Assembly (NCBI RefSeq): GCF_038561955.2
Contig: NZ_CP138333.2
Location: 1,240,001-1,304,000, forward strand
From: Salinicoccus sp. Bachu38
Lineage (GTDB): Bacteria; Bacillota; Bacilli; Staphylococcales; Salinicoccaceae
Direction of reading: 5' to 3'
DNA: 64,000 nucleotides
Position numbers and translations under genes: made by a program. Below, piece after piece: positions 10,041-26,549 of this stretch. A model generated the notes under the pieces. The model made no database searches, had not been told where the DNA came from, and saw only the letters and a list, made by a program, of their open reading frames with translations. Each line of letters opens with the position of its first letter. Position 1 is the first letter of the stretch.

Positions 10041-10724
10041 ATGCTGACTGAAGAGTTGAGAAATGAAGCGGAACCGATCATCGAAGCAATCTATAATGAC
10101 ACTTTCATCCAGGGGCTGATACATGGAAACATCGATGCGGCTGCAGTCATCCATTACCTGAGGGCGGATTCATTGTATTTGGAGGAGTTTGCGAATCTCT
10201 ATGCAATGCTGATTGCCAAATCCGATTCGAAGGACACTGTGAAATTCCTTCTGAGTCAGATGGAATTCCTGCTCGAAGGTGAAAGCGAAGCGCACGCAGT
10301 ACTGGCGCAGGCGGTCGATATGCCCTATGAGGATATCATCAGGGACGGGGCGTGGTATCCATCCGCCGACCACTACATCAAACATATGTACTTCAATGCA
10401 TTCTCGAGGGAGAATATCGCATTCACTTTGAGTGCGATGGCACCATGTCCATATGTCTACAGAAGGATTGCCGAGAAGGCGATGGCGCGGCATACATTTG
10501 AAGCCGGCCATCCTTATCGCGGCTGGTTTGAATTCTACGCCAGGGACATGGATGATACGCTCGATGTGATGCTGACGATAATCGATAACGAAGCGGAAAG
10601 AATGCCGGCTGAAGACATGAAGCAGCTCAGAAGGAATTTCATCGAAAGTGTGGAACATGAAAGGCGCTTCTTCAATATGGCGGCGACGAAAGAACGCTGG
10701 ATGGAGGTGGATGTCCATGCATAG
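10041..10724 (+). CDS. tenA: TenA family aminopyrimidine aminohydrolase (thiaminase II)
   Basis: Hydrolyses amino-HMP precursors (base-degraded thiamine) to HMP for thiamine salvage. The 227 residues fit the all-helical TenA fold. The probable catalytic cysteine is C136 in MAPCPYVY, matching Cys135 of Bacillus TenA, and the C-terminal ESVEHERRFF carries the conserved glutamate. The start ATG at 10041 has AAAGGAGAG upstream; a longer open frame runs back into the riboswitch and is not used. It is the first gene of the TPP-riboswitch operon and overlaps thiD by eight bases. Confidence 0.92.
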   Translation: MLTEELRNEAEPIIEAIYNDTFIQGLIHGNIDAAAVIHYLRADSLYLEEFANLYAMLIAKSDSKDTVKFLLSQMEFLLEGESEAHAVLAQAVDMPYEDIIRDGAWYPSADHYIKHMYFNAFSRENIAFTLSAMAPCPYVYRRIAEKAMARHTFEAGHPYRGWFEFYARDMDDTLDVMLTIIDNEAERMPAEDMKQLRRNFIESVEHERRFFNMAATKERWMEVDVHA

Positions 10725-11523
10725 GATGCCGATTGCACTGACGGTGGCAGGAACGGACCCAACCGGCGGCGCGGGGGTGCTGGCAGACAGCAAGGCCTTC
10801 CATTCGAGAGGCGTATACGGCATGGCGGCCGTGACTTCGCTGACTGCCCAGAATACGATGGGCGTACAGGATGTGTTCAATGTTCCTGCAGAGTTTCTGG
10901 AGAAGCAGCTCGAGAGCATATTCAGTGACGAAGTGCCCCATGCGATGAAGAGTGGAATGGTCGCGACAATCGATATGATGGTAGTGGTTGCGAATATGGT
11001 GGAGGATTATAATATTCCTTTCGTCATCGATCCGGTCATGATCGCCACGAGTGGAGATGCGCTGATAGAAGAGGAATCGATCGAATTCCTCAGGAGTACG
11101 CTGCTTCCTGCGGCACTTACCGTCACGCCGAACATCCATGAGGCCGAGAAGATTACAGGGCATAAGATCGAGAAGGAAGCGGATGTCAGGAAGGCCGCCC
11201 GAATATTCCTTGATGAAATCGGTGTGCACAGTGTGACGATAAAGGGTGGGCATTTGGAAGGTGATGCTGTGGATTATCTTTTTACGCATGAGGACACAGT
11301 CATTCTGAGTGAACCGCGTATAGAAACCAGTCACACACACGGCACAGGGTGCACATTCTCTGCTGTAATGACGGCAGAGCTCGCAAAGGGAAAGACGCTT
11401 GAAGAGAGTTTCCGACTGGCAAAAAGATATATTACATCCGCCATCAGGAACAGTCCGGGCATCGGCAAAGGCAACGGTCCGGTCAACCATTTCAGTTTCA
11501 GGGAGGAACAGGTTCATGAATAG
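10717..11523 (+). CDS. thiD: Hydroxymethylpyrimidine (phosphomethylpyrimidine) kinase
   Basis: Phosphorylates HMP to HMP-P and HMP-PP, feeding the pyrimidine half of thiamine. The ribokinase-like fold shows as AGTDPTGGAGVLADSK near the N-terminus, VIDPVMIATSG in the middle, VTPNIHEAEKITG, and the C-terminal THGTGCTFSAVMTAELAKG anion-hole/catalytic aspartate region. 268 residues is normal. The start ATG at 10717 has GGAGG nine bases upstream inside the tenA end; the alternative ATG is three codons later. It overlaps its neighbours by eight bases on both sides, suggesting translational coupling. Confidence 0.94.
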   Translation: MHRMPIALTVAGTDPTGGAGVLADSKAFHSRGVYGMAAVTSLTAQNTMGVQDVFNVPAEFLEKQLESIFSDEVPHAMKSGMVATIDMMVVVANMVEDYNIPFVIDPVMIATSGDALIEEESIEFLRSTLLPAALTVTPNIHEAEKITGHKIEKEADVRKAARIFLDEIGVHSVTIKGGHLEGDAVDYLFTHEDTVILSEPRIETSHTHGTGCTFSAVMTAELAKGKTLEESFRLAKRYITSAIRNSPGIGKGNGPVNHFSFREEQVHE

Positions 11524-12301
11524 ATTGGAAAGATTGAGAAAAGAAAATCCTCTGGTCGTCTGCATTACCAATGACGTGGTAAAAAACTTTATGGCAAACG
11601 GCATGCTGGCAATCGGCGCTTCTCCAATAATGAGCGGGGAAATATCGGAGTCTGAGGATCTGATGCAGGCGGCATCGGCACTATTGATCAACATCGGTAC
11701 GGCGGACCGCGCCAAGGCGCATCTGATGGATGAGATGATGGAATCAGCGAATGAGAACGGGATTCCCATCATTTTTGATCCAGTCGGTTTCGGTGCGTCA
11801 CGCTTCCGTGTGGATATTACGGAAGATCTGCTTGCCCGCCATAAAGTGGCGCTCATCAAAGGCAACGCTGGAGAGATGCTGGCACTCTCCGGGTCAGAAA
11901 GCCGGATGAAAGGTGTGGATTCTGCCGAAGCGGGAAATACTACAGAAATCGCCGAAGCCGTCCATCGAAGATATGGCGTCCCGGCACTGGTCACGGGAGA
12001 GAAGGATGCACTGGCAACGGAGCACGGGGTGACGACGATGGTCAATGGCCATGGCCTGCAGGGCAAGATTACAGGCTCCGGATGCCTGCTCGGCGGCATC
12101 ACGGCTGCGTTCATCGGCACTGCGGACACTTTCGAAAGGGAGGCGGTTGTGGACGCTGTGAGCTACTACAATCTGTGTGCCGAAGCGGCTGCAGGCAAGT
12201 GTGCCATACCTGCGCCGGGCACCTTCATAGCCGGCCTCATCGATGAACTGTACCTGAACGACGATACTCTGCTTGAAGACAGTCTGGTTGGGGGCATATG
12301 A
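11516..12301 (+). CDS. thiM: Hydroxyethylthiazole kinase
   Basis: Phosphorylates hydroxyethylthiazole (THZ) for salvage of the thiazole half of thiamine. Visible are the N-terminal VVCITNDVVKNFMANGMLAIGASPIMS substrate region, the VIFDPVG-like FDPVGFGAS stretch, and the C-terminal GSGCLLGGITAAF catalytic loop. A usual substitution is seen: the ITNxVV motif keeps the asparagine. At 261 residues it is full length. The start ATG at 11516 lies behind GGGAGG within the end of thiD, and the stop overlaps the thiE start. Confidence 0.94.
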   Translation: MNRLERLRKENPLVVCITNDVVKNFMANGMLAIGASPIMSGEISESEDLMQAASALLINIGTADRAKAHLMDEMMESANENGIPIIFDPVGFGASRFRVDITEDLLARHKVALIKGNAGEMLALSGSESRMKGVDSAEAGNTTEIAEAVHRRYGVPALVTGEKDALATEHGVTTMVNGHGLQGKITGSGCLLGGITAAFIGTADTFEREAVVDAVSYYNLCAEAAAGKCAIPAPGTFIAGLIDELYLNDDTLLEDSLVGGI

Positions 12302-19754: not shown

Positions 19755-20633
19755 ATGAGAAAAACAGTGGTCATTCTACTCATCATCTCTGTCATCTGCA
19801 TCGCATTTGCTGCGATTTTTGTAAAGTTGTCTGAAGCACCGGCCAGCATCATCAGCATGTACAGAATGATGTTTGCCAGTATCTTGCTGACTCCGATTGT
19901 CTTCAAGTACAGGCGGGAATTGACGAAACCCACACGCAGAGAGTGGGGCGCCCTGATTATTGCAGGACTATTCCTCGCAATGCATTTCGGATTCTGGTTC
20001 GCCTCCCTGCATCTCACTTCCGTAGCAAGTTCTACGGTCATTCTCGCTTTGCAGCCCATTGCTGCGATGGTGGGTGCCTTTCTGGTCTACAGGGAGCGGG
20101 TGAGTGCCAAAGTCGCATTTTCGGTGTTCGTTTCGTTCTTTGGGGTGGTCATCATCAGTTGGGGGGACTTCAGCTTCACCGACTTGAGCGCCATTGCGGG
20201 CAACATGCTTTCCTTCCTGGGCGTCATAACCGTTGTCTGCTACTTTATGATCGGACAGAATTCCGTCCGGAACCTCACGCATTGGGTCTACAGTTTCATT
20301 GTATTCGGTATCGCCGGGTTCTTTCTATTGATATACAACATGGCCACCCGGACGGATTTGTTTATGTACCCACCAAAGGAGTGGGGACTATTCCTGCTGC
20401 TTGCGATTTTTCCCACGATTGCACATGTCATATTCAATTACCTGCTGAATGAGGTGAGTCCGACAACGATTTCCATGGCCATGCTGCTCGAGCCCGTTGG
20501 TGCATCCATACTGGCATTCTTCCTGCTTTCGGAACACTTGGATATATATCAAATTTTCGGGGGAATCATCGTACTGTTCGGTGTCTACTTCTTCCTGTTG
20601 AGCCAGCGGAAGCGGAAATACATGGAAAGTTAG
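19755..20633 (+). CDS. EamA family (DMT) transporter
   Basis: A 292-residue drug/metabolite transporter with ten hydrophobic helices in two EamA repeats (about 5-135 and 148-285). Typical marks are PASIISMYRMMFA, LTSVASSTVILALQP, and in the second repeat LLNEVSPTTISMAMLLEPVGASILAFF. Such proteins export amino acids or metabolites; no substrate is visible. Start ATG 19755 has only a weak AAAGAAG site. Its last 68 bases overlap the convergent acetyltransferase gene. Confidence 0.88.
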   Translation: MRKTVVILLIISVICIAFAAIFVKLSEAPASIISMYRMMFASILLTPIVFKYRRELTKPTRREWGALIIAGLFLAMHFGFWFASLHLTSVASSTVILALQPIAAMVGAFLVYRERVSAKVAFSVFVSFFGVVIISWGDFSFTDLSAIAGNMLSFLGVITVVCYFMIGQNSVRNLTHWVYSFIVFGIAGFFLLIYNMATRTDLFMYPPKEWGLFLLLAIFPTIAHVIFNYLLNEVSPTTISMAMLLEPVGASILAFFLLSEHLDIYQIFGGIIVLFGVYFFLLSQRKRKYMES

Positions 20634-21087
20634 GAACGAAATACTCTACATTTTTTATAGATTTTTTGAACATAAAACTTGATTTGTCATAATCTATTTT
20701 TTCCTCATAGAATCTGTGGGCCTCTTTACGTGCCAATACGGATGAAAGGGCGAAACTTTCATAATTATTCTTTTCAGCCCATTCATATACGAAATCAAAA
20801 AGCTTCTTTCCGTGACCTTTAGATCTGATCTTATGGTCTGTGACCAGATCACATACCCAGACCAATCTACCGTAATAAAGTGTAATCATAGATTTGAATC
20901 CGCAGACTGCAACTATTTCCTCATTTTCGAATAGGACATGCAAAAGATAATTATCTACTTCTTTCGCTTCTTTTACAAGATCCACATACTGTAATTCATC
21001 CAGGTGTGTCCTCAGTTGTTTCATTACAGTAAAGTCACTGCGAATTTCTCCATCTGTATTCAATTCTTTTATAATCGATATTTTCAA
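20566..21087 (-). CDS. GNAT acetyltransferase, overlapping the EamA gene
   Basis: A 173-residue GNAT-type acetyltransferase; CoA loop DHKIRSKGHGKKLFDFVYEWA (about 82-102) and the ARKEAHRFYEEKIDY closing helix. The domain ends near residue 147 (SSFMFKKSI); the remaining 25 residues, rich in S, R and T, read through into sequence antisense to the EamA gene, so the tail looks like a stop-codon loss. Start is TTG with AAAGGAG nine bases upstream. The substrate is unknown. Confidence 0.75.
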   Translation of the reverse strand: MKISIIKELNTDGEIRSDFTVMKQLRTHLDELQYVDLVKEAKEVDNYLLHVLFENEEIVAVCGFKSMITLYYGRLVWVCDLVTDHKIRSKGHGKKLFDFVYEWAEKNNYESFALSSVLARKEAHRFYEEKIDYDKSSFMFKKSIKNVEYFVPNFPCISASAGSTGRSRHRTVR

Positions 21088-21123
21088 GTTGTTAACTCCT
21101 TTTACATCGATTTATTAATATAC

Positions 21124-21886
21124 TCAGGCGTAACTTATTGTCAATTCCAAAAAGGCTTTGAAATTCTCTTTCTTCTCAATATCAAGGCTATGGTTATTGA
21201 ACTTAAAGGTAGCCAGTGGGCAGTTACGCATCAAATCTGCTACTTCCTCCCTGAAGCCATGAGGACACTGTGCATCATGGCTGCCACAATAGACATAGGT
21301 TTTCACAGGAGTTTTCTCCAGTTCTTTGCGGAAATCATAGTCCTTGAGCTCTGATTTGTAGTAATCAATTTTGCACATCAACATTCTTCCGCTTTCTTTC
21401 CGAATAAGCAGTTCATAGTAGGCGTTTTTCCTGTACAGTGACATCATTGTCAATTCCGCGGACAGGGTGATGCGTTCTTCCCATGGTGTCTCCGGTTTGT
21501 GAAGTTCTGCAAATATTTCTTCATCCTCTTATTTTTTGGGTTATTCTTGCTATAGAATAGATACGGCCTGGAGACTCATATAATGCATATAGCCCACCCG
21601 CAGTTATCTTTGAGAGACTATTCGGACTCATCACTGCATATTTCAAAGCAAGGAACCCCCCAATGGAATAATTGGAAAATGTCTATTTATTGAACCATAG
21701 TGATTCTCTGATCGATTCTAAGTAGTGAATGGCATCTTCCATGTTGTATGTATATTCATCAGTTTGGTCGTCAGACCGCCCGAGACCGCGCAAGTTGATG
21801 AGATGGAAAGTATAGTGTACGGATAAAATCTGAGACATGATGTTGCCCTTCTTATTAAATTCACTGTAGAAGTGCGTAAAGGCCAA
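21124..21886 (-). pseudogene. Decayed alpha/beta hydrolase gene
   Basis: Three pieces of one alpha/beta hydrolase are spread over different frames. Residues such as FHLINLRGLGRSDDQT (about 21785-21830) lie in the first frame. The nucleophile-elbow region NYSIGGFLALKYAVMSPN (about 21600-21670) is in a second, with a serine before GG. The C-terminal YVYCGSHDAQCPHG (Asp region) and NNHSLDIE (His) lie in a third. Stops and frameshifts near 21530 and 21685 break it, and the N-terminus is short. It probably belonged to the proline-iminopeptidase-like group. Confidence 0.8.
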
Positions 21887-22516
21887 AGGCAGTTTTTTAC
21901 TTACTTTAAAAATTTCAAATTATCCTGGTTCTGTATCCAACATTATTGAAAGAAATATTCAATTCCTCCTTTTTGATATTAATAATATCTAAAAATTTAA
22001 TCTTTAATTTGATATAATTATTGTATAACAATTAAATACCAATAGTATAATGTAAATGAAACTTTTTTATTCAAAAGAAGTTATTTGAAAAGATTTTTCT
22101 AAAGCTTATTTCCAGCATGTTGAGACTCCAATTTGTTCAAGCGAATGAAGGATTCATAATCAAGTATTCATAGCTTTGGTTGTATCCTTTATAAATGTGA
22201 ACGTTGAAACTATACTCGCAATAAGAGGTGGGTTATTAAAAAACAATCGTTACCTGGAAGCTGATTTTTAGTTTTTCAAAATATAAAGTCATTACAATCT
22301 CGGCAACAAAGTGAGGATGACTGGTTCGCTTATCTCGATAGTGAATATATCCATAAATACATTTACTAGATATAATCAGAAAGTACAACAGTGAAGAAAA
22401 ATGTAATAGTGCCTACATAGTTATCATAAACGCAATAAGGAGTAATAAGAATCTAGATATTTACTTATAAAATAAAACACAGCCTAATGATAATTAAGTG
22501 AAGGGGAGGGGGAAAT
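21887..22516. other. AT-rich intergenic stretch, no gene seen
   Basis: About 630 bases of markedly AT-rich sequence with stops in all frames. The only coding-like piece is a 34-codon frame without a start near 22265-22370 (ending DSEYIHKYIY), probably chance or remnant. An unassigned promoter for the nuclease gene must lie here; a GGGGAGGGGG ribosome site precedes the start at 22517. Confidence 0.6.
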
Positions 22517-23413
22517 ATGAAAACAATACCTTATGAAGTGTCAGAACAAATAATTCAATGCTTCGGAAAATGCTTCCATTTAAAAGATACTGTTGCTGCA
22601 TTTATGATTTCATCTGATGTACCGTACTCACTTGTCAATAAATATCGACATGAATATAAATTTGTTTGGGCGAGAAGAGTTCTAGAGGAATTGTCTACTA
22701 CAGAAGAAGGTAGGGTGATACAAAATAGAATTTTAACTAACCTTTATATGCTAAGAGATTTACCAGATAAGACAGTTAAAGATAGAAACACTGGTTTAAA
22801 AACATTACGACAACTAAAGAAAATAGCTTTAGAAAATAAACTAATAGAACAACAAGAAAAAGAAACTCATAATAGTAAGGAAAAAATTGAGAGAGAAAGA
22901 TTACTATTAATAGAACAAAGAAAGGAGCGTTTAGAACAAGTTCGCAAGTCCTTTAACGAAGCATTAATAATGACAGATCGGCAAAAAGCTGGATTTATAC
23001 TAGAAGATATTCTTAAAGAACTATTCGAAGTATTTGATATAGACTATAGAAAATCCTTTCGTAATCCAACTAACACTCAACAGATAGACGGCCATTTTAA
23101 ATTTGAAGGCTTCGATTATCTCGTTGAATCAAAATGGACCACTAGCTTTCCCGACTCAGCAGATATTTCTAGCTTTAAAAATAAAATTGACTCTAAGCTA
23201 TCAAGTACTAGAGGTATATTCATCTCGATAATCGGTTTTAGAGACGGAGTAGTTCAAGAATTCAGTGGAAGAGACTCAAAAATTATTTTTGTTAGTGGCG
23301 AAGATCTTATTCATGTTCTTGAGGGAAGATTAGACTTGCATGAAGCTTTAAGGATGAAAATTAAAAAAGCTGCACAAGAAGGGGTAACTTATTTTTCTGT
23401 TTCTAATCTTTAA
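22517..23413 (+). CDS. PD-(D/E)XK nuclease with helical N-terminal domain
   Basis: A 298-residue predicted DNA endonuclease of the Mrr-type PD-(D/E)XK fold. The C-terminal half (about 155-298) has E163 in an LEDILKELF helix, D191 in QIDGHF, and E204-S-K206 in LVESKWTT, that is the D-x12-ExK pattern, followed by the TRGIFISIIGF strand. Residues 1-85 form a compact helical domain (KDTVAAFMISSDVPYSLVNKY), and 88-150 a highly charged coiled coil. I recall such proteins only as uncharacterised 'restriction endonuclease' genes. Codon use is strongly AT-rich relative to neighbours, a sign of transfer. No methylase is next to it. Confidence 0.8.
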   Translation: MKTIPYEVSEQIIQCFGKCFHLKDTVAAFMISSDVPYSLVNKYRHEYKFVWARRVLEELSTTEEGRVIQNRILTNLYMLRDLPDKTVKDRNTGLKTLRQLKKIALENKLIEQQEKETHNSKEKIERERLLLIEQRKERLEQVRKSFNEALIMTDRQKAGFILEDILKELFEVFDIDYRKSFRNPTNTQQIDGHFKFEGFDYLVESKWTTSFPDSADISSFKNKIDSKLSSTRGIFISIIGFRDGVVQEFSGRDSKIIFVSGEDLIHVLEGRLDLHEALRMKIKKAAQEGVTYFSVSNL

Positions 23414-23424
23414 GTTAACTTATA

Positions 23425-23770
23425 AAAGTGGATATATTGAAATGGGCTGAAGTGTATAGTGATGCCCATACACACCTGTGTTCGATCAAATGGAAAATTT
23501 CAGACAACGTCTCTCCTTTTTGAGGCATATTAATGACAAAGGACTTCAACGTGTCATTGCACTGCTTATAAGGGACAGTAGTCTGTTGTTTTAAGACACC
23601 ACTCAAGTCACGAGGGACCCCAATCTTAATTTTTTCATATTCTGTATGTAAGATGAAAGAATACACACTATTTCTGAAATTTCCGGAATTGAAGCCAATG
23701 CAATCACATTTTTCATAGTCTCAGAATGCTGGTATTGCTGTTTTAAGCAATGTATTCTCTGCAGTTTTCA
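23425..23770 (-). mobile_element. Remnant of an IS256-family transposase gene
   Basis: The minus strand keeps degraded pieces of an IS256-type N-terminal region: YEKCDCIGFNSGNFRNS, then HTEYEKIKIGVPRDLSG, PYKQCNDTLKSFVINMPQKG and LSEIFHLIEHRC, and, after a frameshift, YGHHYTLQPIS. This matches the family pattern of SGNSRNGxY, TEYGELxIxVPRDRxGEF, VAPYxRxNDTLE, YEKGxTxxEI and YGHHYTPQTIS. Stops (for example before DYEKC) and the frameshift kill it, and the DDE catalytic part is missing. The original insertion was probably in the gap between the two AT-rich genes. Confidence 0.78.
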
Positions 23771-23981
23771 GGTGACTGAGAAAAATTCTTGCAACGTCTT
23801 CTTTTTATTTATTCATTTATACAAGATGTTTTACGCTCTCAATTAAAACCCAAAATATATTTTAATTTGTGTGATGGACAACTTAATTAGTAAAAATAGA
23901 ATACTCTTAAAATACGTTATTTCAAAAGTTAGCTTTAGTAGAATTAAGGACTACCATGCTAAGGAAAAGAGGCTTAGATAG

Positions 23982-25175
23982 ATGTATGAATGCGTTGATC
24001 AAGAAACGATTTTCAATTTGATTAATACTCCTGAGGATGAAATGCATGATTTTAAACAAGTGTGGTATAAAAAGAGCCAAAAACCAGAAATGGTGAGAGA
24101 TATATTTAGCTTCGTAAATACTACTCACCATAGGGTGTGTTATCTAATAATAGGAGTAACAGATCAACAAAAAGTCGTTGGAGTAGAAGAAGATCCTAAT
24201 CGAATGAATCAACAAAATATGATTGACTTTATCAGTCATTTGCCTATTGCTAATGATGCTATTCCAAAAGTTTATGTACAAAAAATAAAGATAGATGGTC
24301 ATGAGATTGATATTATAATCATCCCCAATACTAGAAATGTTCCTATATATCTATCTTCAAAATATCCTCAAAAAGGGCAAGGGAAGCCTCTTAATCCTGG
24401 GCAAATTTTTTCTCGCATAGGGGATGTAAACACACCGATTACTGAAACAACGAACTTTTACCAAGTGCAATCCTTATGGAGAAAACAATTCCATTTAGAT
24501 GTTCCTATACAAGAGCAGTATAAATATGTATTAAAAGATACATTTAATTGGTCTTATATAGAGCAAGATGAAAATCATGGGTTTGTATATAATCTAAATC
24601 CTGACTTTTTTATAGCAATGGAGGACGACGATATAAATCGTCATCAAGTAGAGGCGTTAAGCATTGACCAAATTAAAGTAAGGATGGGTTGGAATTTTTT
24701 AAAACTAAAGTTTAGAAATTTAACGATTTCTTCATTACTAATAGTTTCAATTGATGAATCTAGATATTACATGGTTGTTCCAGATCATCACTTCATTAAA
24801 AATAATGATAACAGGAACCATCCCTTAGCATATTATGCAATGATAGAAGAAACATTTATACATTTAGTTGATAAAATGATTAACCATGCTCCTAATTCTT
24901 TTACTAACTATGATAGCCATTCGAGCGAAAAAACTAGGAATAATATTGTAATTTACCAAAACGAAGAGGAAAAAGATGAGATACATAGTAAAATTTTAAA
25001 ATTATATCCAGAGCTTTCAAATTCAATAGAACCCTCGTTGGAAGAAGTGGAGGACTATTCAAGAAAGGTGAAATCTCAAATTGATAAAAAAAGTGGATAC
25101 AACGAAGATAATATTCGTTATATTCTTCGTCAAAGGAATTTAGCACAATTAATTAATAACTATATATACCGTTAA
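23982..25175 (+). CDS. AlbA_2 (Schlafen-type) domain protein
   Basis: A 397-residue protein. Residues 15-165 fit the AlbA_2/Schlafen-like ATP-binding domain (PF04326): EDEMHDFKQVWY, VRDIFSFVNTTHHR, CYLIIGVTDQQKVVGVEED, and the IPIYLSSKYPQKG strand leading to IFSRIGDVNTP, where an R-x-G-x-N/T-like motif is usual. The C-terminal 230 residues match nothing I know; they contain the WNFLKLKFRNLTISSLLIVSIDE strand region and a charged tail. Start ATG has AGAGG about nine bases upstream. Composition is AT-rich. The proximity to a predicted nuclease suggests defence, but this is inference. Confidence 0.75.
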   Translation: MYECVDQETIFNLINTPEDEMHDFKQVWYKKSQKPEMVRDIFSFVNTTHHRVCYLIIGVTDQQKVVGVEEDPNRMNQQNMIDFISHLPIANDAIPKVYVQKIKIDGHEIDIIIIPNTRNVPIYLSSKYPQKGQGKPLNPGQIFSRIGDVNTPITETTNFYQVQSLWRKQFHLDVPIQEQYKYVLKDTFNWSYIEQDENHGFVYNLNPDFFIAMEDDDINRHQVEALSIDQIKVRMGWNFLKLKFRNLTISSLLIVSIDESRYYMVVPDHHFIKNNDNRNHPLAYYAMIEETFIHLVDKMINHAPNSFTNYDSHSSEKTRNNIVIYQNEEEKDEIHSKILKLYPELSNSIEPSLEEVEDYSRKVKSQIDKKSGYNEDNIRYILRQRNLAQLINNYIYR

Positions 25176-25631
25176 TCATAAGTGTTCTGTATAAAAGCAT
25201 AATGATGGACTATGAGATGAAGAATATAACCATACACAGTGAACACCAAAAGAGGGTCTGATGCCGAAATGTCCCTTATCTGCCTCTTTGATTATATTGC
25301 TTCTTTAAAACTAAAAAGAGTTATGAAATTTTACCACAGAATTTTCCAGGTCTATTTCTTTTTTATTCTTTTTGATGGATTTTATCAACTTTCTCACCGT
25401 CTGTCTTGAAGTGCATGACTATCCATTCCGATGGAATTTATACTTTTTTGGCAACGATGAATATGAGTGGCACTCCTTTTTTATGTATTTGTATTTTCTT
25501 ATAAGCAGTATATCAGCTATAAAAGAAATTTTAGGTTATGAAATGTAAAAAGATGGTACTTGTGATAGGCTGGGGAATGTATGGTTGTATAAAATGCAAT
25601 CACGCAAATACACCGAGAGGAGTGGTTGTAG
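25176..25631. other. Intergenic stretch with no clear gene
   Basis: About 455 bases at the right edge of the AT-rich region. A 7-bp inverted repeat AAAGAGG/CCTCTTT encloses 25250-25291, possibly an old terminator. A 57-codon frame at 25375-25548 has no ribosome site and was not accepted. The ribosome site of the ABC gene lies at the end (GAGGAGTGG). Confidence 0.5.
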
Positions 25632-26549
25632 ATGTTAAAGTCAGCAATGGAAATCAAAGCATTACATAAGGATATTGGTCGTAAGAACATCATCAAAAAC
25701 TTGAGTTTTGATATTCGTCCTGGCGAAGTGTTCGGATTCATCGGGCCCAATGGCGCGGGTAAGACAACGACAATCCGCATGATGGTCGGACTGATTGGCA
25801 TTACGAAGGGTGATGTGGTCATCAAGGGCCACAGCATCAAGAAGGATTACAGTAAAGCAATCAGTGAAGTGGGGGCCATCGTTGAGAATCCAGAGATGTA
25901 TCCTTTCATGACGGGATGGCAGAATCTGAAGCACTTCGCAGGGATGTCGAATGGAATCACTAATGAACGCATCAATGAAGTGGTCCAGCTAGTGGGGCTT
26001 GAAAATGCGATCAAGACCAAGGTTGGCAAGTACTCACTCGGGATGAGACAGCGCCTTGGGATTGCGCAGGCATTGCTGCACAAACCATCCGTCCTCATCC
26101 TGGATGAACCGACTAATGGACTCGATCCGGCAGGCATACGGGAAATCCGGCGTTACATACGGAGATTGGCTGTGGAGGATAATGTTTCAGTCATCGTATC
26201 CAGCCACCTGCTCAGTGAAATCGAGCTGATGTGCGATCGCATAGGTGTCATAAAGAACGGCAAACTTATTGCGATCAAAGATCTGAATGAAGAAGCGGAT
26301 ACTGAGGAATGTACCGTAAATCTAGAGGTAAATCCTCAAGAAGAAGCGATTGAAGTTGTGCGCGCACTTCCCAATATCAAATTGCTGGATACAAATGAGC
26401 GGATACAGATTCAAATCAATAGAAACGACATCCCACATCTCGTGACCACGCTGGTACAAAAAGATGTGCAGGTATTCGGCGTCAATGTCGCGCAGTCGAC
26501 ATTAGAAGATCGATTCCTTGAGATGATTGGAGAGAACACCATTGAATAA
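25632..26549 (+). CDS. ABC exporter ATP-binding protein (BcrA type)
   Basis: A 305-residue ATPase of the ABC-2/BcrA group. Walker A GPNGAGKTTT (about 42-51), a Q-loop replaced by the EVGAIVENPEMYPFM segment, signature KYSLGMRQRLGIAQALL, Walker B VLILDEPTNGLDPAGIREI and the switch histidine in VSSHLLSE. The last 80 residues are the accessory domain usual in bacitracin-type exporters. Partner permease overlaps by eight bases. Family roles range from peptide-antibiotic efflux to membrane-protein export; the substrate is not visible. Confidence 0.92.
   Translation: MLKSAMEIKALHKDIGRKNIIKNLSFDIRPGEVFGFIGPNGAGKTTTIRMMVGLIGITKGDVVIKGHSIKKDYSKAISEVGAIVENPEMYPFMTGWQNLKHFAGMSNGITNERINEVVQLVGLENAIKTKVGKYSLGMRQRLGIAQALLHKPSVLILDEPTNGLDPAGIREIRRYIRRLAVEDNVSVIVSSHLLSEIELMCDRIGVIKNGKLIAIKDLNEEADTEECTVNLEVNPQEEAIEVVRALPNIKLLDTNERIQIQINRNDIPHLVTTLVQKDVQVFGVNVAQSTLEDRFLEMIGENTIE

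What the first reader, a model, noticed from the sequence alone, without database searches (positions are those of the whole stretch)
22517..23413. PD-(D/E)XK nuclease with a helical N-terminal domain and coiled coil in an AT-rich island
The protein joins a small helical domain (1-85), a charged coiled coil (88-150) and a nuclease core with E163, D191 and E204-x-K206. The helical part is of the kind that often acts as a sensor or partner-binding domain in abortive-infection proteins. No modification enzyme is near, so a simple restriction-modification role does not fit. I know no characterised member of this exact order.
Basis: partly seen in the sequence, partly recalled or inferred. Interest (0 to 1): 0.6.

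Follow-up and report, generated by a model that had tools for sequence, protein, structure and literature searches.

The report
Death-fold nuclease from bacterial defence islands
This gene encodes a probable DNA-cutting enzyme joined to a small helical domain that resembles the 'death domains' of animal immunity; relatives are scattered across bacteria, some beside antiviral genes, so it is probably an uncharacterised one-gene antivirus weapon.

Summary
In detail: an intact 298-aa gene in an AT-rich patch encodes a helical N-domain, a long helix and a PD-(D/E)XK nuclease with E163, D191 and E204-x-K206 (AlphaFold pLDDT 93.7). The nuclease half resembles R.BspD6I/FokI and Mrr cores. The N-domain alone (pLDDT 96.5) is a six-helix bundle whose top solved matches are Death-fold domains (best Z 6.6: suggestive, not proof); a minority of relatives hit Pfam EAD8/EAD1. 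Relatives of the same ~300-aa layout occur in many phyla, some beside Lamassu, Septu-like, type I R-M or Gabija genes; neighbours match more defence models than control stretches do. In the window the gene is a rare acquisition (1 of 157 genomes of its order) in a variable locus, with an IS256 remnant and a Schlafen-type candidate (PDC-S50) behind it. No R-M gene in the window, no NACHT protein in the genome and no second N-domain in 51 genomes were found, so neither simple R-M nor the canonical 'EAD principle' fits. Best reading, inferred: a one-gene antivirus nuclease triggered by self-assembly or partner binding of a Death-like domain. Its parts are known kinds; I found no model or paper for this stand-alone combination.

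The parts
22517..23413 (+). 298-aa nuclease gene (whole ORF)
   Evidence: full-length relatives
22517..22840 (+). N-terminal six-helix domain, residues 1-108, Death-fold/EAD-like (suggestive); K48 invariant in 80 of 80 rows
22847..22966 (+). long linker helix, residues 111-150
   Evidence: region 89-150 is the least conserved part
22979..23380 (+). PD-(D/E)XK (Mrr_cat / FokI-BspD6I-like) nuclease domain, residues 155-288; E163, D191, E204, K206
   Evidence: Mrr_cat in relatives
22028..25596 (.). segment without nucleotide match in the syntenic region of congeneric genome G046; the nucleotide alignment stops at 22027 and resumes at 25597
23432..23846 (-). remnant of an IS256-family (Mutator) transposase between the two genes
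23982..25175 (+). Schlafen AlbA_2 protein, 397 aa, PADLOC candidate PDC-S50; neighbour, probably a separate acquisition

Best explanation
A horizontally acquired, one-gene antivirus (or anti-mobile-DNA) nuclease. Shown by sequence or model: a C-terminal PD-(D/E)XK nuclease with an intact catalytic set, a long helix, and a six-helix N-domain of probable Death-fold type that, in the genomes searched, occurs only on this nuclease. Inferred: the N-domain keeps the protein inactive or monomeric until infection makes it self-assemble (or dock on an infection-induced partner); clustering through N-domain and long helix brings FokI/BspD6I-like nuclease domains together so that they cut phage DNA, host DNA or both. 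Whether the outcome is clearance or abortive infection is not decided.
For: Nuclease: catalytic conservation, Mrr_cat over its cut-off in relatives and at E<=0.1 in 39 of 81 members, structure match to 2p14 Z 12.1, 148 residues, 3.1 A, AF1548 Z 11.0, FokI 2fok Z 10.6. Death-like domain: the first 14 rows of the VIA table for the N-domain model are Death, CARD or PYD domains or CENP-N (Z 6.6 to 4.2; first other row Z 3.4); Pfam EAD8 at E<=0.1 in 14 of 81 and EAD1 in 6 of 81 members, one member (L074) over the EAD8 cut-off. The N-domains of the two subfamilies are homologous: hhalign probability 98.4%, E 4.5e-15; 120 control N-termini, as single sequences against the profile of all rows, reached at most 8.6% (not like for like). 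Defence context: of the four closest named relatives, L017 lies behind LmuA-LmuC-LmuB, L018 near PDC-M62A/B (Septu-like), L020 directly behind hsdM-hsdS; for L019 the two downstream neighbours scanned one by one had no PADLOC hit. Patchy spread: 1 of 157 genomes of the order, 11 of 398 of the class, itself included; two well-supported halves of the tree that each mix many phyla. AT-rich variable locus.
Against: Foldseek finds no PDB match below E 1 for the N-domain, and Z 6.6 is within what helical bundles can give by common arrangement (note). P0001 itself matches no EAD, Mrr_cat or PADLOC model. Two genuine EAD8 sequences (L137, L140) gave hhalign probabilities of 0.1-0.6% and 0.7-8.4% against the family profiles, no better than the best control. 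PADLOC tallies count matching models, not genes, and several loci sit among ordinary genes. 15 of 80 members have R for the catalytic K. pTM of the whole model is 0.65, so the arrangement of the domains is unknown. No activity data; self-assembly is untested.
Confidence: 0.5

Rival explanations
1. A type IV-like (modification-dependent) restriction enzyme: the N-domain and helix read modified or otherwise foreign DNA and the Mrr-like core cuts it, without any assembly step.
For: The catalytic core is Mrr_cat-like; structure rows include AspBHI and MspJI, modification-dependent enzymes; no R-M model matches in the window, as expected for type IV; the one invariant lysine (K48) of the N-domain could touch a phosphate.
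Against: No winged helix, SRA or other DNA-reading domain among the Pfam hits of P0001 or the 25 of 68 families shown for 81 members; best structural matches of the N-domain are mostly protein-interaction domains.
Confidence: 0.2
2. An EAD-type effector of a larger NTPase-centred conflict system (the 'EAD principle' of Kaur et al. 2020): the N-domain docks on a copy of the same domain in a core component encoded elsewhere.
For: EAD8/EAD1 hits in some members; Mrr-like REases are named among effectors of such systems (PMC7159879, passages read).
Against: One copy of the N-domain per genome in 51 of 51 genomes at E<=0.01 (several are MAGs and may be incomplete); no NACHT match at E<=1e-4 and no EAD1 match at E<=0.01 in the window's genome; NACHT in 3 of 9 genomes, over its cut-off in 2.
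Confidence: 0.15
3. An accessory or replacement subunit of host restriction systems (for example cutting in place of HsdR).
For: In L020 the gene follows hsdM-hsdS immediately; in L052, L089 and L090 the gene directly upstream is of about 1030 aa and of one family and three members of that neighbour set match type I restriction enzyme models, so they are taken to be HsdR.
Against: No R-M model matches in the window; this association recurs in few loci (HsdR-like family in 3); L052, L089 and L090 already have an HsdR.
Confidence: 0.08
4. A housekeeping or repair nuclease, or a selfish gene of a mobile element, without antivirus role.
For: EndoMS structures are among the matches; recombinase-like genes lie near it in 6 loci.
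Against: Too patchy for housekeeping; neighbours of relatives match more defence models than control genes do (against 88).
Confidence: 0.07

Closest known systems
Mrr_cat / FokI-BspD6I-like PD-(D/E)XK nucleases (PF04471; R.BspD6I small subunit 2p14; FokI)
   Same: Catalytic E-D-ExK set and core fold; R.BspD6I2 is the best structural match
   Different: No recognition domain of FokI/BspD6I type and no winged helix of Mrr (both recalled) was seen; the N-domain is a six-helix bundle
Effector-associated domains / bacterial Death-like domains (EAD1, EAD8; PMC7159879, PMC8195603, passages read)
   Same: Small helical terminal domain coupled to an REase-type effector; weak Pfam EAD8/EAD1 hits in a minority of members
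   Different: No second copy found in 51 genomes, no EAD1 or NACHT in the window's genome; the papers stress multicellular prokaryotes
CARD-NLR antiphage systems (PMC13236601, passages read)
   Same: Helical CARD-like domain at the N-terminus of a defence protein
   Different: Those are multi-gene (protease, NLR-like protein, effector); here the nuclease itself bears the domain and no NACHT was found in the genome
CoCoNuTs with PYD/CARD-like domains (PMC11090510, passages read)
   Same: Death-superfamily-like domain and nuclease within one defence context
   Different: CoCoNuTs are McrBC systems with a GTPase; none was recognised beside this gene (eight window ORFs)
PADLOC PDC-S02 (candidate, function unknown)
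   Same: Weak hits in 13 of 81 members for one of its models, best 1.5e-7
   Different: P0001 does not match it

Membership tests
PD-(D/E)XK nuclease superfamily | catalytic acidic residues and ExK | tested here: met
   E163 79/80, D191 80/80, E204 80/80, K206 65/80 (R in 15) in the 80-row alignment; P0001 has all four
PD-(D/E)XK nuclease superfamily | restriction-endonuclease fold | tested here: met
   AF2 pLDDT 93.7; 2p14 Z 12.1, 148 residues, 3.1 A; Foldseek alone gave no PDB match at E<=0.001, best 4.4e-3
Pfam Mrr_cat (PF04471) | model match over its cut-off | tested here: inconclusive
   P0001 no match at E<=1; 55%-identical relative 28 bits against 21; 39 of 81 members at E<=0.1
Mrr type IV restriction enzyme | winged-helix N-domain (recalled) | tested here: not met
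   no such Pfam hit for P0001; all-helical six-helix N-domain in the model
Death-fold / bacterial Death-like domain | six-helix Death fold | tested here: inconclusive
   first 14 VIA rows Death/CARD/PYD or CENP-N, best Z 6.6 over 82 residues, 3.0 A; Foldseek best E 2.2
EAD (EAD8/EAD1) | Pfam model over cut-off | tested here: inconclusive
   P0001 no match; 14 and 6 of 81 members at E<=0.1; L074 over the cut-off, L065 23.5 bits below it; two EAD8 sequences not significant against the family profile
[quoted passage not shown]
   one match in each of 51 genomes at E<=0.01; 27 of the 30 stored hits run on into the nuclease motif, the other 3 lie at the coordinates of L050, L060 and L079
CARD-NLR system | NLR (NACHT) and protease partners | tested here: not met
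   no NACHT at E<=1e-4 in the window's genome; a protease partner was not searched for
Restriction-modification system | cognate methyltransferase nearby | tested here: not met
   no methyltransferase or restriction-enzyme model among the 23 PADLOC models matching 58 window ORFs at E<=1e-10; motif scan found only a chance-like SPPY at the very end of ORF 10672-12129(-)
Antiphage defence gene | protects cells from phage | not testable with these tools
   needs plaque assays

The most novel reading that the evidence does not exclude
A bacterial 'death-domain DNase': sensor/assembly domain and executioner in one 300-residue protein, an inflammasome-like switch without any NTPase hub, spread by transfer through many bacterial phyla including unicellular ones, and polymerising on infection to switch on DNA cutting by nuclease proximity.
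Probability: 0.25. Interest if true: 0.78.

Novelty: new variant of a known kind. Interest (0 to 1): 0.52.

Why it matters
In the papers whose passages I read, Death-fold domains of bacteria are described mainly as adaptors in multi-gene systems, often of multicellular species. A widespread single-gene protein that wires such a domain straight to a DNase would be a very simple form, easy to test, and could show whether Death-fold assembly alone can trigger an immune effector. It would also turn proteins now named 'restriction endonuclease' or 'hypothetical' into a defined defence family.

Tried and rejected
R-M role: no R-M model matches in the window and no methyltransferase motif of note. 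Two-gene system with the Schlafen neighbour: blastp of P0002 against the ORFs of the 101 loci then held found only L016, a plasmid locus fetched with P0002 itself, and an IS256 remnant lies between the genes. Phage cargo: no match in 50,697 phage records, none in viral contigs with the single protein, 5 loci with the alignment. Ryanodine-receptor match by phmmer, E 6e-4 for the whole sequence but best stretch 0.12: taken as chance. Profile comparison with independent EAD8 proteins could not be built: 0 of 198 genomes (E<=1e-8) and 1 of 247 (E<=1e-6; the already known G523) had EAD8; the two EAD8 sequences at hand were not significant. Rfam: nothing at gathering threshold in 21000-26000. Promoter and terminator scan: 11 promoter-like sites against 18.8 expected, 1 terminator-like site against 1.1 expected, so uninformative. 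Nuclease-protease pairs of PMC12799240 (passages read) are MBL-fold, hence another fold. Passages of the BREX and phosphorothioate papers PMC12839542 and PMC10853773 found by my terms do not describe it. Paper searches for a published description: (open-licence library only). Search of the whole model in viral structures gave one match at E<=0.001, a phage 'restriction endonuclease'.

Limits of counts: the 81/80-row alignments use rows chosen for an alignable N-domain; 9 of 89 prepared rows with other N-termini (L003, L005, L009, L011, L012, L013, L014, L100, L101) were left out, and L001, L004, L006, L007, L033, L045, L053, L064 and L097 were dropped before as duplicates or partial. N-ends of over-long ORFs were trimmed by hand-chosen offsets. 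The tool kept the best 80 of 99 related loci. Neighbour set A5 is 124 of 138 genes from 26 loci of the first subfamily (L033 left out); A8 is 120 of 156 genes from 41 loci of the second (12 loci left out as near-copies or partial); both by a crude ORF caller. Control A7 is 120 genes from 20 stretches of 19 of the same genomes. Only 25 of the 160, 267 and 68 matching models were shown to me.

Full report
The gene. ORF 22517-23413 (+) codes for 298 residues. The three 1-kb windows around it (22001-25000) have GC 0.30-0.33, the six windows on either side 0.35-0.53; its GC3 is 21% against 46-65% in three nearby conserved genes. The window's genome holds one copy (E<=10), and none of the other 156 genomes of its order has a relative at E<=0.001; in the class it is 11 of 398, itself included.

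Locus. In a congeneric genome (G046) the same flanks are present: window 20502-22027 aligns at 78.5% identity and the match resumes at 25597, while about 10.3 kb of other genes (by ORF listing, named by eye, a sensor-regulator pair and an ABC transporter) occupy the place in between. So this is a variable locus, in which the window carries the nuclease, an IS256 remnant and a Schlafen AlbA_2 protein that matches the defence candidate PDC-S50 at 7.4e-106. The two genes do not travel together: no relative of the second was found among the ORFs of the other nuclease loci. Of 58 window ORFs of 110 aa or more, 23 PADLOC models match at E<=1e-10, apart from PDC-S50 mostly helicase-, radical-SAM- or regulator-like by name and none of them an R-M model.

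Family. One scan of genome contigs gave 99 related places, of which the best 80 were kept. The 80 rows aligned are 295-321 residues long, median 307, after trimming of over-long starts. A tree of these rows splits into two well-supported halves of 27 and 53 rows, each mixing many phyla. P0001 falls in the first; its closest relatives (53-55%) are in Bacillus and Lysinibacillus, then a Nitrospirales, a Treponema and a Firmicutes MAG at 50%. In plasmids, 1383 records carry a relative at E<=1e-5 but only one covers 80% of the query. Elsewhere the same nuclease has other N-terminal modules: the L003/L005/L100 type and L009 do not align with this N-domain by hhalign (at most 1.6%), whereas the L012/L013/L014 type (96.4%) and L011 (86.3%) do.

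Nuclease domain. P0001 alone matches no Pfam model over cut-off, but relatives pass Mrr_cat. Invariant in 80 of 80 rows are G159, D191, G192, E204, W207, T231 and G233; E163 is E in 79, Q189 is Q in 79, and K206 is K in 65 and R in 15. The full-length model matches the cleavage subunit R.BspD6I2 (Z 12.1), Nt.BspD6I, AF1548, FokI and CRISPR ancillary nucleases; Foldseek alone gave no PDB match at E<=0.001. pTM is only 0.65, so the placing of the two domains relative to each other is not reliable.

N-domain. Predicted alone from 80 rows it has pLDDT 96.5 and pTM 0.89. Foldseek gives nothing below E 1. The VIA second look aligned 226 chains; its first 14 rows are Death domains (UNC5H2 6.6, p75NTR 5.5, FADD 5.3, TRADD 5.3 and others), CARDs (Apaf-1/caspase-9 5.7, RIG-I 5.6), a PYD (IFI16 4.4) or CENP-N, whose N-domain is pyrin-like (recalled); the next row is at 3.4. 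By the tool's own note such Z-scores can arise from common helical arrangements, so the claim rests on the uniformity of the rows together with Pfam: EAD8 in 14 and EAD1 in 6 of 81 members at E<=0.1, with the L074 member over EAD8's cut-off. Against it, a direct comparison with two true EAD8 sequences was not significant, at most 0.6% for L137 and 8.4% for L140. K48 is the only residue of the N-domain that never varies in 80 rows.

Does it follow the EAD principle? Kaur et al. (PMC7159879, passages read) define EADs by a second copy of the domain on a core component. A profile of the N-domain found one match in each of 51 genomes; the 30 stored hits are the nuclease itself (27 by motif; 3 by coordinates), the other 21 were not looked at one by one. 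The window's genome has no NACHT match at E<=1e-4 and no EAD1 match at E<=0.01; among nine genomes NACHT was found in three, over its cut-off in two. So either the partner is not recognisable by sequence or the protein works alone. I favour the second.

Defence context. PADLOC at E<=1e-10 on neighbours of the first subfamily matched 160 models (124 proteins), on the second 267 models (120 proteins), and on 120 proteins from control stretches of some of the same genomes 68 models, among the 25 shown chiefly SNF2- and UvrD-type helicases and mad proteins. These are counts of models, many of which hit the same protein, so they show a trend, not a tested enrichment. Named cases: a Lamassu set (LmuA, LmuC, LmuB) before L017, a Septu-like pair near L018, hsdM-hsdS directly before L020, HsdR-like genes directly before L052, L089 and L090, and models for GajA, GajB, HerA and a type III enzyme among neighbours of the second subfamily. 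Against this, several loci have ordinary neighbours, for example groES-groEL before L027 (by eye), and L019's two downstream neighbours had no hit.

Mechanism. The layout, a Death-like domain joined by a long helix to a nuclease of the FokI/BspD6I kind (FokI cuts as a dimer; recalled), suggests activation by clustering. That is inference. Rivals are a type IV-like enzyme, an EAD effector with a missing hub, and an R-M accessory; each is listed with its test.

Known or new. The nuclease class, EADs and CARD-like defence domains are all known. In the paper searches and in the passages read of PMC7159879, PMC8195603, PMC13236601, PMC12799240, PMC12839542, PMC10853773 and PMC11090510 I saw no description of this stand-alone combination; P0001 matches no PADLOC 2.0.0 model at E<=10 and no NCBIfam model over its cut-off. 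I rate it a new variant of a known kind.

Noticed in passing
window 23982-25175 (+): Schlafen AlbA_2 protein matching PADLOC candidate PDC-S50 (7.4e-106) and phrog_29016; distant relatives in 11 other genomes of the order and on plasmids of lactobacilli and others.
   Followed up: partly
window 21124-22027 (-): Remains of an alpha/beta-hydrolase-like gene spread over more than one frame beside the AT-rich segment (named by eye); matching DNA is present in G046.
   Followed up: partly
L020 7148-10891: Nuclease relative begins at or near the end of hsdS in an hsdM-hsdS operon of a Nitrospirales MAG; whether an HsdR is present elsewhere was not searched.
   Followed up: partly
L003, L005, L100, L009: The same nuclease C-domain occurs with unrelated N-terminal modules; among 1383 plasmid records with a match 1136 are Klebsiella.
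   Followed up: partly
alignment A3, residue K206: 15 of 80 members have arginine in place of the catalytic lysine.
   Followed up: no
L006 370-945 (-), same gene as L018 10899-11474: A second, small stand-alone Mrr_cat protein (191 aa, 2.3e-15) lies directly downstream of the nuclease relative.
   Followed up: no
L066 and L075: In both loci the nuclease relative lies near a recurring two-gene set that looks by eye like SIR2 plus HerA.
   Followed up: no
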